Shown: in pieces, positions 2,687 through 6,151 of the stretch
Layout: every line of letters starts with the position of its first letter
How positions within the stretch are numbered: the first letter of the stretch is position 1
IMG/VR virus record: IMGVR_UViG_3300007533_000007
Coordinates: 1-37,762 of that record
Reading direction: 5' to 3' (one strand)
Length of the DNA: 37,762 bases
Origin: a virus
Notes under the pieces: generated by a model
What the model was told of the DNA's origin: nothing
The model's input: only the letters and a program-made list of their open reading frames with translations
The model's database searches: none
Made by a program: the position numbers and the translations under genes

Positions 2687-2730
2687 AAGCCGACCCCCTC
2701 AGAGGACAAGGCTCTGAGAAGTATCGGCTT
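2687..2730 (-). terminator. Two-tier hairpin terminator or attenuator before the replication operon
   Basis: On the minus strand TAAGCCGA pairs with TCGGCTT (2724-2730 with 2687-2693), enclosing a second perfect pair, CTCAGAG with CTCTGAG (2712-2718 with 2698-2704). GGCT is followed by a run of seven T. This is an intrinsic terminator, but its T-tract ends only a few bases before the ATG at 2678. A 6-bp hairpin (CGGTTT/AAACCG, 2737-2754) precedes it. The arrangement suits either termination after the 98-residue gene or attenuation control of the replication genes. Confidence 0.75.
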
Positions 2731-2833
2731 AATATTCGGTTTATCGGGAAACCGTGTCAGTCCTTGTCACTCACACAGTTCACCATAAATAAGTCAATGC
2801 TTTATATTAATTATTTAAGGCAACTATTACAAG

Positions 2834-3132: not shown

Positions 3133-3510
3133 TTATTTTTGGATTACGTAGATTTTGTCAAGTTTATCTTCTATAGATTTCCATGTAGCATCATCGGTAT
3201 AAATACAAATCCCGTATGTTTCGCCGTCATTTACATCATCCAAGCCTATAACATGAGTCGGCTTTTCCACATCGAATGTTTGATCATATTCACTACCGGA
3301 TAATTTGATTCTTGCCTTACCTATTAGTTCTCTCGGTAGATCTATTTCGGCACGTGTTATTCCATGCCTTTTATGACCGTATGTTCTCATTTTGCACGAT
3401 ATATCGCCTATATCGGACTTGTCCCCTATCTCTGTCTTTGATTCAGGAACAAGGGCTGCTGGCATTAACGGTATTGCGGGAAGTGATGTAAGAAAGTTTT
3501 TTCTACGCAT
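3133..3510 (-). CDS. Hypothetical protein with a possible Tat-like N-terminus; first gene of the minus-strand programme
   Basis: 125 residues. The start 'MRRKNFLTSLPAIPLMPAAL' has twin arginines and a weakly hydrophobic stretch, which could be a Tat-type signal peptide but is short and proline-rich. The rest looks beta-rich (RAEIDLPRELIGKARIKLSG, KPTHVIGLDDV) and gives no family match. It is the most upstream minus-strand gene in the circular order, facing away from the plus-strand cassette, so it may be early expressed. The start has no Shine-Dalgarno. Confidence 0.65.
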   Translation of the reverse strand: MRRKNFLTSLPAIPLMPAALVPESKTEIGDKSDIGDISCKMRTYGHKRHGITRAEIDLPRELIGKARIKLSGSEYDQTFDVEKPTHVIGLDDVNDGETYGICIYTDDATWKSIEDKLDKIYVIQK

Positions 3511-3550: not shown

Positions 3551-3580
3551 TTGAAATTGTGACCGTACTTGCCGATATTT
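3551..3580 (+). promoter_or_regulatory. Candidate promoter for the plus-strand cassette
   Basis: TTGAAA at 3551-3556 and TATTTT at 3575-3580 are spaced by 18 bp, compatible with a sigma-70 type promoter. TTTG at 3550-3553 with the same TATTTT also loosely fits the Bacteroidota -33/-7 pattern. Transcription would begin near 3587, just before the structured RNA. It lies in the divergent gap between the 125-residue minus gene and the cassette. Consensus matches are modest, so this is a candidate only. Confidence 0.35.
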
Positions 3581-3586
3581 TAATCG

Positions 3587-3704
3587 TTGACATTTTGAAT
3601 GGATCATTCCTGAAAGTCGTGTGCCCTATCAGGGGCGATCCCCCAACAAATTAGCCTGAAGGCGAATGTGAGGCACACCACATTTTAGCTTTCAGGCTTT
3701 TTTA
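3587..3704 (+). ncRNA. Structured non-coding RNA with predicted pseudoknot and intrinsic terminator
   Basis: Four helices can be drawn on the plus strand. GAATG-GAT-CATTC (3597-3609) and GGGG-CGAT-CCCC (3632-3643) are small hairpins. An 11-bp stem pairs 3653-3663 (AGCCTGAAGGC) with 3688-3698 (GCTTTCAGGCT, one G-U), capped by a second stem AATGTG/CACATT (3665-3670 with 3679-3684). Its 8-nt loop AGGCACAC contains GGCACAC (3672-3678), the exact complement of upstream GTGTGCC (3619-3625), giving a 7-bp long-range pseudoknot. TTTTTT follows the main stem at 3697-3703, so the RNA would end near 3704. No open frame covers it. No known RNA family is recognised. GAATGGATCA at 3597-3606 resembles box B of the neighbouring array (8 of 10). 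Confidence 0.7.
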
Positions 3705-3718
3705 TTAGTCAGTGTGCA

Positions 3719-3826
3719 TAAGAAACCCAAAAAACTGAAACGAGTCAGTACGCTTAATAAACCCAAGATGCTAAAATGAATCACAATAAGTTAGAAACCC
3801 AAGTAGTTGAAATGAATCATAACTAA
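3719..3826 (+). repeat. 36-bp two-box repeat array, upstream block (3 units)
   Basis: Three contiguous units begin at 3719, 3755 and 3791, each exactly 36 bp: box A TAAGAAACCCA (11 bp), a variable 8-mer, box B AAATGAATCA (10 bp), a variable 7-mer. Variable blocks are AAAAACTG/GTACGCT, AGATGCTA/CAATAAG and AGTAGTTG/TAACTAA. The first unit is worn (box B AAACGAGTCA), and a fainter box B (TTATTAGTCA) overlaps the end of the RNA terminator. The last unit ends directly at the AAGGAG ribosome-binding site of the following gene. Confidence 0.95.
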
Positions 3827-3837
3827 AAGGAGTCAAT

Positions 3838-4779
3838 ATGTCTAAAGAAGCCCTTAAAACTGCGATCATAGAAAAACAAAATGGTGAATGTGCTCTGTCG
3901 GAAGCCCCGTTAAAGCCCGACCTCATGCTAGTTGATACCGACCGAATTCTACAAAAAAAGGACGGTGGTATCTATACGACCGAGAACACCCGTGTCGTTG
4001 ATCCTGTCGCTCACATGAAACGACACGGCAACTACAGGGACCGCGAGGAAGCATTGCACGAGTTGAAGGTAATCATGGACGGGAGAGAGAAAGTTCGCCA
4101 GCATGTCAATGCAACGGGCAACCGTATTTTAGCAATGGAACGGGGAACAGATGACCTTGACGTGAATACGATTGATTGGCTCAAAGAACAACAGGATGCA
4201 GCAAAAAAACGTTTGTCAAAGATAGACCGCAAGGTTAAAAAGCATCTGGAAAGAATGCCGCATGAAATCATTAATGCGGCCCTGGATGTGGATTCTGTAG
4301 GTCCGATTACAGTAGCTTATATGATGATCTATATTGACATAGAGAAAGCTCCCTACGTGTCAAGTATGTGGAAATATACCGGCCTTCACACATCATCGCA
4401 CCAACGATATAAGAAAGGGGAAACTTCCGGCGGGAACAAAACACTTCGGACCGCCCTTTATACGATGGCCGAATCGCAGATACGCGGACGCGGTGCTTAC
4501 CGTGATGTTTACGACCGTACAAAGGCGAAGCTTGAAGTCAGTGAAAAGATTACTAAGAGCCGAAATACGCAAGGTAATCTTATTGAATGCAAGTGGAAGG
4601 ACACCAAGCCTTCACACAGGCATGGAGCCGCTATACGGCAAATTATGAAGCATTTCCTTGCCGATTGGTGGATCGTACACCGTACGCTCGAAGGACTTGA
4701 TACTCCAAAACCTTACCCGATAGAAAAGTTAGGACATAAAAACTGGATTTATCCAGAGGAAAGAGGGTGGGAATATTAA
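3838..4779 (+). CDS. IS110-type transposase C-terminal (Tnp) domain protein lacking the DEDD domain
   Basis: 313 residues, with AAGGAG placed 7 bases before ATG. Residues about 142-215 match the IS116/IS110/IS902 transposase domain (Transposase_20): 'VDSVGPITVAYM' (helix-hairpin-helix), 'WKYTGLHTSS' and 'TSGGNKTLRTALY'; Ser186/187 sit where IS110 enzymes carry their nucleophilic serine. A coiled coil (about 110-140) precedes it. The RuvC-like DEDD domain of IS110 enzymes is absent. Instead residues 1-66 look like a worn HNH fold (C18, D33/D35, GG43-44, N50, H59, H63). The C-terminus (255-313) has 'SHRHGAAIRQIMKHFLADWW' and ends 'LGHKNWIYPEERGW'. Known IS110 enzymes recombine DNA with a bridge RNA. 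Here a structured RNA lies upstream and repeat arrays lie on both sides. Function is inferred. Confidence 0.75.
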   Translation: MSKEALKTAIIEKQNGECALSEAPLKPDLMLVDTDRILQKKDGGIYTTENTRVVDPVAHMKRHGNYRDREEALHELKVIMDGREKVRQHVNATGNRILAMERGTDDLDVNTIDWLKEQQDAAKKRLSKIDRKVKKHLERMPHEIINAALDVDSVGPITVAYMMIYIDIEKAPYVSSMWKYTGLHTSSHQRYKKGETSGGNKTLRTALYTMAESQIRGRGAYRDVYDRTKAKLEVSEKITKSRNTQGNLIECKWKDTKPSHRHGAAIRQIMKHFLADWWIVHRTLEGLDTPKPYPIEKLGHKNWIYPEERGWEY

Positions 4780-4789
4780 TCAACACTGG

Positions 4790-5132
4790 AAAGAAACCCA
4801 TAAAGTTGAAATGAATCACGTTCCTTAAGAAACCCATGAAGCAAAAATGAATCATGATAAAAAAGAAACCCAAGCGCCTAAAATGAATCACTTCTCCTAA
4901 GAAACCCAAAATGTTAAAATGAATCATGTGTGATAAGTAACCCACGACTTTGAAATGAATCATGACTCCCAAGAAACCCATATAGTTTAAATGAATCATC
5001 ACTCCCAAGAAACCCATGATAGGAAAATGAATCAGATGGTTTAAGAAACCCAATATGTTAAAATGAATCATTTTTTTTAAGAAACCCATATTATAAAAAT
5101 GAATCAGACCATTTGAGAAACCCAATATATCA
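4790..5132 (+). repeat. 36-bp two-box repeat array, downstream block (9 full units plus a worn end)
   Basis: Units start at 4790, 4826, 4862, 4898, 4934, 4970, 5006, 5042 and 5078, with a final half unit at 5114. The period is exactly 36 bp throughout. Box A is (T/C/A)AAGAAACCCA with single changes in a few units. Box B AAATGAATCA is identical in all nine. Variable 8-mers and 7-mers keep constant length; examples are TAAAGTTG/CGTTCCT, AGCGCCTA/CTTCTCC and ATATGTTA/TTTTTTT. The 8-mer tends to end GTTR. Some blocks look duplicated (AAATGTTA and ATATGTTA; TGACTCC and TCACTCC). The core of box B, TGAATCA, is a near-palindrome. The array ends about 40 bp before the next gene. Confidence 0.95.
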
Positions 5133-5172
5133 CATAACCGCAACGTACATAATAGGCAGTAAAAAAAACACT

Positions 5173-5622
5173 ATGAAATACCTGATAACCTTTCTACTAC
5201 TTCCGTCAGTTATTGCGGCACAATCCATTTCTGTAGCTCCTACTTCATTTAAGGCATGGGGTAAAACTGGATATTATTCATCTATTTCAGCATCCTATAA
5301 AAATATAGGCATTCACTATTTCCATCCGTACAAAACATTGTATTGGAAGAATGAAAATTATGAGGGAAATGGTCCTGAAACAACTCCTGCTTTTGCCATA
5401 TCATATACTCCTATAAACGTAGAGGATATACTGAGAGCTGGTGCTATTATTTTTGATAGGCCTTTTCCGATAAAGATTGGATCTCAAATTAATTTTAAAT
5501 TATCGGCTGGATATTCATTTGGAATAGTTCGAGTATCATATGTTCATATCAGTAATGGATTCGGTATTATGAATGATGTAAATCCTGGTATGGATATGAT
5601 GCAACTATCTCTCAACCTGTAA
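5173..5622 (+). CDS. Secreted PagL-like (lipid A 3-O-deacylase / acyloxyacyl hydrolase-like) outer-membrane protein 1
   Basis: 149 residues, starting at MKYLITFLLLPSVIAAQ, a clear signal peptide; the in-frame ATG at 5113 would spoil it. The mature part alternates as in a small beta-barrel. Near the end is 'YVHISNGFG' followed by 'VNPGMDMMQLSLNL', matching the H-x-S-N plus NPG pattern of PagL, whose His and Ser (here H125, S127) are catalytic and which removes an acyl chain from lipid A in the outer membrane. The expected acidic partner is not obvious. The next gene is a paralogue. A phage copy could alter host LPS during infection; this is inference. Confidence 0.5.
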   Translation: MKYLITFLLLPSVIAAQSISVAPTSFKAWGKTGYYSSISASYKNIGIHYFHPYKTLYWKNENYEGNGPETTPAFAISYTPINVEDILRAGAIIFDRPFPIKIGSQINFKLSAGYSFGIVRVSYVHISNGFGIMNDVNPGMDMMQLSLNL

Positions 5623-5716: not shown

Positions 5717-6151
5717 ATGAAACGTTTACTGATCATTCCATTGATTCTAATCACAACTACTGCAATATGCCAGACAGTTTCATTCGCTCCTTATTCGGCC
5801 AAATTATGGGGACAAACCCCACAAACAGCCACAATAAGTGCTGAATATGAAAACTTTGGTTTGCATATTTTTGCACCGAGGGGGCGCCATGTGAACGATC
5901 AAGGCAACGAAATGGAACTAAGTTTTGCTGCATCATATAAAAAGCCGATACTCCAAAAAGTATTAAAGGCTGGGGTTATGGTATTTAGTCGTCCATTCCC
6001 TACTGATTCTGATTATCAAGTCAATTTTATTATTGATGCCGGATATACTTTTAATGGTGTACGTCTTTCATACGTGCATATTTCCAATTTGGGACTCGGA
6101 AAATACAATACCGGGTTCGATACTTTTCAAGTTACATTTCCGCTTTTCTAA
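5717..6151 (+). CDS. Secreted PagL-like outer-membrane protein 2 (paralogue)
   Basis: 144 residues with a signal peptide (MKRLLIIPLILITTTAIC). It aligns along its length with the preceding protein: 'VSFAPYSAKLWGQT' with 'ISVAPTSFKAWGKT', 'YENFGLHIF' with 'YKNIGIHYF', 'SRPFP' with 'DRPFP', and 'LSYVHISNLGLG' with 'VSYVHISNGFG' (H121, S123, N124). The NPG motif is replaced by 'YNTGFDTFQV', so activity is less certain. It lies 94 bp after gene 1; that gap (5623-5716) shows no gene. A duplication within the plus-strand cassette is likely. Confidence 0.5.
   Translation: MKRLLIIPLILITTTAICQTVSFAPYSAKLWGQTPQTATISAEYENFGLHIFAPRGRHVNDQGNEMELSFAASYKKPILQKVLKAGVMVFSRPFPTDSDYQVNFIIDAGYTFNGVRLSYVHISNLGLGKYNTGFDTFQVTFPLF

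What the first reader, a model, noticed from the sequence alone, without database searches (positions are those of the whole stretch)
3551..5143. Candidate new system: structured RNA + two-box 36-bp array + DEDD-less IS110-type Tnp protein
On one strand, in the only gap of the phage gene order, lie a compact RNA with a predicted pseudoknot and terminator, an array of 36-bp units split around a gene, and a protein with the IS110 Tnp domain. IS110 recombinases use a bridge RNA with short paired guides to choose target and donor DNA. Here each array unit has two constant boxes and two short variable blocks (8 and 7 nt) of constant length, a shape that could hold short bipartite guides or sites. 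I infer an RNA-guided or array-rearranging DNA element, or a phage defence or counter-defence cassette. A DNA-binding array for the protein is the main alternative.
Basis: partly seen in the sequence, partly recalled or inferred. Interest (0 to 1): 0.93.

Follow-up and report, generated by a model that had tools for sequence, protein, structure and literature searches.

The report
Phage TIGR-TasH system with kissing-loop leader
The array and protein are a phage copy of TIGR-TasH, an RNA-guided DNA-cutting system described in 2025, so the main find is a new member of a known kind; the structured RNA in front of it looks like a phage leader element that also precedes other operons and does not seem to have been described.

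Summary
Window 3838-4779 encodes a 313-aa protein flanked by 3 + 10 units of a 36-bp two-box array, with a structured RNA just upstream (3601-3703).

The system is not new: it is TIGR-Tas, TasH subtype (Science 2025, PMC12045711). The protein is 52% identical to Salicola phage CGphi29 TasH, passes NCBI's TIGR_Tas_endo cut-off, and its predicted fold matches the TasH-tigRNA-DNA cryo-EM structure (Z 30). It has an N-terminal HNH nuclease and a C-terminal Nop/IS110-like domain. The array has the defining edge-8-loop-8 design. All 21 other tasH records, plus one TasA record, have such an array beside the gene. No self-targets were found; the targets are unknown.

The RNA is very unlikely to be a bridge or guide RNA. 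It is two hairpins with a 7-bp kissing interaction; the second hairpin is an intrinsic terminator. A second RNA of the same design lies at 2687-2790 (-), before the replication operon. Similar leader-terminator RNAs precede tasH or its array in four other phages, and a sequence-conserved family of five includes two with no tasH found. I read it as a phage cis-regulatory leader (attenuator). It has no Rfam match and is not mentioned in the TIGR-Tas paper's main text.

The parts
3601..3703 (+). Leader RNA 1: 5' hairpin (stem 3601-3641, loop with GUGUGCC), linker, terminator hairpin (about 3654-3697, apical loop AGGCACAC) and T6; 7-bp kissing loops
   Evidence: Sequence; MFE z -5.8; kissing pairing in 2 of 2000 shuffles; the only hit in the window in the strict scan; no Rfam match
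3704..3819 (+). [quoted passage not shown]
3838..4779 (+). tasH: HNH (about residues 1-65), coiled coil (71-139), Nop/IS110 C-terminal domain
   Evidence: 52% id to CGphi29 TasH; NF052498 113.1 bits, cut-off 100; PDB TasH E 3.6e-100; model pLDDT 90, Z 30 to 9w04
4773..5132 (+). TIGR array 2: degenerate edge repeat overlapping the tasH stop codon, then 10 complete units of 36 nt (edge AAATGAATCA, spacer A 8 nt, loop AAGAAACCCA, spacer B 8 nt)
2687..2790 (-). Leader RNA 2: same design as RNA 1 with exactly complementary 7-nt loops GACAAGG / CCUUGUC, terminator and T7, about 9 nt before the start codon (2678, -) of the first gene of the replication operon
   Evidence: MFE z -5.5; kissing loops in 2 of 2000 shuffles; no Rfam match at gathering score

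Best explanation
A phage-borne TIGR-TasH system. The two arrays are transcribed with tasH as precursor tigRNA and cut within the edge repeats into 36-nt tigRNAs (half edge, spacer A, loop, spacer B, half edge). A TasH dimer holds each tigRNA through its Nop domains. The two 8-nt spacers pair with opposite strands of adjacent target DNA, and the two HNH domains each cut one strand. Most likely use: removing or disabling competing mobile elements or phages. The kissing-loop RNA in front is a leader that ends transcription before the cassette unless the polymerase reads through, i.e. an attenuator of a kind the same phage also places before its replication genes. Shown here: homology, fold, array anatomy, association of array and gene, RNA structure statistics. 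Inferred from the published SpTasH/TaTasR experiments: processing, dual-strand targeting, cleavage. Inferred only: regulation by the leader, and biological role.
For: 52% identity over 97% of the query to CGphi29 TasH, the TasH tested in PMC12045711. NCBIfam TIGR_Tas_endo above cut-off, IS110 transposase model far below its own cut-off (29.8 vs 140). Fold matches TasH-tigRNA-dsDNA (9w04) over the whole length, Z 30, TM 0.89-0.90; the HNH part also matches Cas9 HNH and T4 endonuclease VII. Invariant D33, R36, G44, N50 and nearly invariant H59, H63. Arrays in all 21 other tasH records and one TasA record, near the tas gene and on its strand, with no further array of this type in those records. 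441 of 454 adjacent edge/loop gaps are 8 nt, matching the 16-nt total reported for SpTIGR. Edge repeats keep pairs 3-8 and 4-7 across loci (226/250 and 223/250 versus 207 and 173 in shuffles; 0 of 500 shuffles reach either); the loop lacks the 4-7 pair, as in the TasR structure.
Against: No target identified. No self-match beyond chance (one 15/16 and no 16/16 hit among 222 units), so nothing here proves that these guides direct cutting. Within single genomes the edge-repeat pairs do not covary beyond shuffles, so the covariation is between lineages. Array 2 has no clear terminator and its last edge repeat is missing, a small departure from the usual array end. The paper saw plasmid loss but no protection against conjugation or phage in E. 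coli, for TasR, so the competition role is not shown.
Confidence: 0.95

Rival explanations
1. An IS110-family transposon or remnant with a bridge RNA: the upstream structured RNA is the bridge RNA and the array consists of recombination sites.
For: Pfam Transposase_20 match; Foldseek matches to IS621; PHROG transposase labels.
Against: No DEDD RuvC domain; HNH instead. IS110 NCBIfam score 29.8 against a cut-off of 140. TasH structures match far better (Z 30 vs 15.9). The same RNA design occurs before a non-TIGR operon, and most tasH loci were not seen to carry such an RNA.
Confidence: 0.02
2. The array is only a set of DNA-binding or regulatory sites for the protein, with no RNA guides.
For: No transcript data; no target found for any spacer.
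Against: Constant 8-nt spacing with variable content across 23 records, strict orientation with the gene, edge-repeat pairing of the kind seen in the tigRNA structure, and experimental tigRNAs from the 52%-identical CGphi29 system.
Confidence: 0.02
3. The kissing-loop RNA is a dedicated TIGR accessory RNA (processing cofactor or regulator working with TasH) rather than a general phage leader.
For: It, or a similar RNA, lies directly before the array or tasH in 5 TIGR-TasH phages (window, L008, L012, L015, L025). In L012, L015 and L025 it is one conserved family.
Against: The conserved family also occurs in L028 and L029 before other small ORFs, with no tasH found in those records (the records are short). 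The window has a second RNA of the design before the replication operon. The L008 phage has two more away from TIGR. Many tasH loci show none in the flanks read.
Confidence: 0.08

Closest known systems
TIGR-TasH of Salicola phage CGphi29 (SpTIGR; PMC12045711; PDB 9w04, 21kl and related)
   Same: Same domain order HNH-coiled coil-Nop, 52% identity, phage-borne, edge/loop array with 8-nt spacers and 36-nt period, structured terminator RNA upstream of the cassette
   Different: Arrays on both sides of the gene rather than only after it; edge AAATGAATCA and loop AAGAAACCCA instead of AAGCGAGCCA and AAGACAACCA; leader RNA of unrelated sequence
TIGR-TasR (TaTasR, PDB 9mty)
   Same: Nop domain, coiled coil of the dimer, 36-nt tandem-spacer units, edge repeat with two pairs
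   Different: RuvC instead of HNH, 9-nt spacers, 23-28% identity in the structural matches (Z 19.9)
IS110-family bridge-RNA recombinases (IS621, PDB 8wt6/8wt9)
   Same: Related C-terminal Tnp/Nop domain (Z about 15.9)
   Different: DEDD catalytic domain, single bridge RNA, no array, recombination rather than cleavage

Membership tests
TIGR-Tas (TasH subtype) | Tas protein: Nop domain related to IS110 and box C/D proteins | tested here: met
   NF052498 113.1 bits (cut-off 100); fold match to TasH and TasR
TIGR-Tas (TasH subtype) | N-terminal HNH nuclease domain | tested here: met
   Residues 1-64 match the N-terminus of TasH 9w04, Cas9 HNH and T4 endonuclease VII; D33, R36, N50, H59, H63 conserved. 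Activity not tested
TIGR-Tas (TasH subtype) | Adjacent array of two alternating 8-12-nt repeats with short spacers of constant length | tested here: met
   Edge and loop 10 nt, spacers 8 nt, 13 units
[quoted passage not shown]
   5'-truncated edge at 3704-3711 and degenerate edge at 4773-4782; array 2 ends at a loop repeat plus 8 nt with no clear terminator
TIGR-Tas (TasH subtype) | Edge repeat has the box C/D pair plus a second covarying pair | tested here: met
   Positions 3-8 and 4-7 across 250 edge repeats, between loci; not within genomes
TIGR-Tas (TasH subtype) | 36-nt tigRNAs bound by the Tas protein | not testable with these tools
   Shown for SpTasH, FpTasA and TaTasR
TIGR-Tas (TasH subtype) | Dual-strand, tandem-spacer DNA targeting and cleavage | not testable with these tools
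   Shown for SpTasH and TaTasR
IS110 bridge-RNA recombinase | DEDD RuvC-like catalytic domain | tested here: not met
   N-terminus is HNH; IS110 NCBIfam model 29.8 bits against cut-off 140, matched only from residue 81

The most novel reading that the evidence does not exclude
The leader RNAs are an undescribed class of phage cis-regulatory RNA: a 5' hairpin whose loop kisses the apical region of a downstream intrinsic terminator hairpin, used as a switchable terminator (attenuator) in front of several phage operons and, repeatedly, in front of TIGR-TasH cassettes. Its one sequence-conserved family (L012, L015, L025, L028, L029) has two covarying pseudoknots.
Probability: 0.35. Interest if true: 0.6.

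Novelty: new member of a known kind. Interest (0 to 1): 0.35.

Why it matters
It adds about 20 TasH loci with 222 catalogued guide units to a system whose natural targets and way of growing arrays are unknown, and shows that these units do not match their own phages beyond chance. If the leader RNA is a switch, it would show when phages turn their RNA-guided nuclease on, and would be a phage regulatory RNA class used well beyond TIGR.

Tried and rejected
Bridge-RNA reading of the upstream RNA: rejected (no DEDD domain, same RNA design before a non-TIGR operon). Accessory guide or tracr-like role: not favoured, since the conserved RNA family occurs with no tasH found in L028 and L029. Self-targeting by the spacers: 222 units against their own records gave no more 14-16/16 matches than shuffled A/B pairs; all 13 window units rechecked, best 14/16. 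Rfam: nothing reached a gathering score for any of these RNAs. The first, loose scan for kissing terminators gave 42 of 203 terminators, too many to mean anything because of long loops; the strict scan gave 5 hits against 0-3 in shuffles but missed the bulged RNA 2. Close relatives of this phage by its DnaB helicase or by the gene at 3133-3510: none in IMG/VR, so no empty-site comparison was possible. TasH in GTDB species genomes and in plasmids: none found. A Streptomyces match to the RNA pattern (L031) scored 16 bits and looks like chance. A scan for the two extra kissing RNAs of the L008 phage found them only in that record. Viral-collection searches for individual spacer pairs were not run: a 16-mer is expected many times by chance.

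Full report
What is there. The record is a 37.8-kb virus contig of IMG/VR with terminase, portal, head, tail and DnaB genes. Between a minus-strand gene (3133-3510) and a plus-strand gene (5173-5622) lies one plus-strand cassette: a structured RNA (3601-3703), a short array (3704-3819), a 313-aa gene (3838-4779) and a long array (4773-5132). The array pattern occurs 12 times within 3 mismatches where shuffles give none. There are 13 complete spacer pairs.

What the protein is. The IS110 match (Pfam PF02371, residues 151-223) is real but is not the best description. The protein is 52% identical over 97% of the query to a Salicola phage CGphi29 protein, which the TIGR-Tas paper names as TasH and shows to be a tigRNA-guided, HNH-dependent nuclease. 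It passes NCBI's TIGR_Tas_endo cut-off and is far below the IS110 cut-off. PDB holds eight entries of that TasH sequence. An AlphaFold model built from 14 homologues (pLDDT 90) superposes on TasH in the tigRNA-dsDNA complex 9w04 from end to end (Z 30.0, 2.4 A, 305 residues), then on TasR (Z 19.9) and IS621 (Z about 15.9). The N-terminal 64 residues are HNH. D33, R36, G44 and N50 are invariant in 15 homologues and H59 and H63 nearly so.

What the array is. I collected viral homologues plus CGphi29 and read the parent records. All 21 tasH records besides the window (20 of IMG/VR and CGphi29) carry a two-repeat array near the gene on its strand, and the scan found no array of this type elsewhere in them; one record (G004) has arrays at six places over 5 kb. 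Of 454 adjacent edge/loop gaps, 441 are 8 nt. The repeat that begins each array truncated (AAATGAATCA here, AAGCGAGCCA in others) is the edge repeat: its positions 4 and 7 are C-G in some lineages and U-A in others (127 and 86 of 250), and 3-8 are mostly G-C, G-U or A-U. The loop repeat lacks the 4-7 pair. This is the edge/loop distinction described from the TasR structure. In this window one edge repeat, AAACGAGTCA, has changed both members of the 4-7 pair relative to AAATGAATCA. Within genomes the shuffles show no excess, so this is covariation between lineages.

Targets. Using the tandem-spacer rule (spacer A on one strand, spacer B on the other, 0-2 bp apart, both layouts), 222 units were matched to their own records with the arrays masked. 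There was no 16/16 and one 15/16 hit; shuffled A/B pairings give about three at 15. The guides do not target their own phage detectably. Their true targets remain unknown, as in the paper.

The RNA. It folds far better than shuffles (z -5.8) as two hairpins, and a 7-nt stretch of the first loop (GUGUGCC) is complementary to the apical loop of the second (GGCACAC). The second hairpin ends in T6, an intrinsic terminator. Looking for the same design, I found a second one in this window on the other strand, 2687-2790, with loops of exactly 7 nt that are perfect complements (GACAAGG / CCUUGUC), z -5.5, ending about 9 nt before the start codon of the first gene of the replication operon. For each, 2 of 2000 dinucleotide shuffles had hairpin loops complementary over 7 nt; RNA 2 was found by a search, so its figure is not a clean test. 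L008 has an analogous RNA with a 9-10-nt pairing directly before its first truncated edge repeat, and the same phage has two more, away from TIGR, with different, matching complementary stretches.

A sequence-conserved version lies before tasH in L012, L015 and CGphi29. A pattern scan of IMG/VR found two further records, L028 and L029, where it precedes other small ORFs and no tasH is found; these records are short. The five align well (covariance-model scores 98-118 bits, the members being its training set). The 7-bp pseudoknot GUAGCAG/CUGCUAC is GUGACAG/CUGUCAC in L015, two compensatory changes, and a second pairing between linker and hairpin loop is kept in all five with different sequences (6-8 bp). 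None reaches an Rfam gathering score. In CGphi29 a TTGACA-17-TATAGT promoter lies immediately upstream. So this is a leader that can end transcription just before the gene or array. Because it is shared with non-TIGR operons it is unlikely to be a TIGR guide. That it acts as an attenuator is inference. The main text of the TIGR-Tas paper does not mention such an RNA and says no accessory RNA was found; its supplements could not be read here.

Verdict. The main finding is a new member of a known kind (TIGR-TasH, confidence 0.95). The part that may be new is the leader RNA class.

Noticed in passing
window 2687-2790 (-): Second kissing-loop terminator RNA, before the replication operon; same design as the RNA in the finding.
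   Followed up: yes
L019/L069/L070 (record G016, 38918-40707): This 99-kb phage has two TIGR systems 4 kb apart: TasH with 8-nt spacers, and a second Tas (377 aa, probably TasR type by its N-terminus) with its own arrays TGCGAGCTA/TGAAATCTA and 9-nt spacers.
   Followed up: partly
L004 2600-8000: Arrays at six places among phage genes; most are followed by a ~77-nt element with a hairpin loop GGUUGG/GGCUGG/GGCUGA matched downstream by CCAGCC/CCAGCC/UCAGCC, which looks like a covarying pseudoknot before the next gene.
   Followed up: partly
L001 4960-5505 and L002 4940-5480: Arrays of two close relatives are collinear mosaics: shared units in the same order with units replaced internally, and some units sharing spacer A but not B; no sign of growth at one end.
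   Followed up: partly
L016 2980-3924: TasH with a degraded HNH domain (H59 to R, H63 to Q) but a complete array: possibly a binding-only TasH.
   Followed up: no
L027 2480-3549 (mycobacteriophage Euphoria gp70) and L026 3950-5010 (Microcystis phage Mvi-JY20): Proteins annotated 'transposase' or hypothetical that pass the TIGR_Tas cut-off (232 and 193 bits); Mvi-JY20 has a 36-nt array after the gene, Euphoria a series of stem-loops before it. 74 Mycobacterium phage records match the query, a good set for target searches.
   Followed up: partly
window 3712-3719: First spacer A after the leader, GTGTGCAT, shares GTGTGC with the leader's kissing loop and could pair with the terminator loop over 6 nt; chance is not excluded.
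   Followed up: no
window 5173-5622 and 5717-6151: Two related small ORFs with weak PagL (lipid A deacylase) matches below the cut-off.
   Followed up: no
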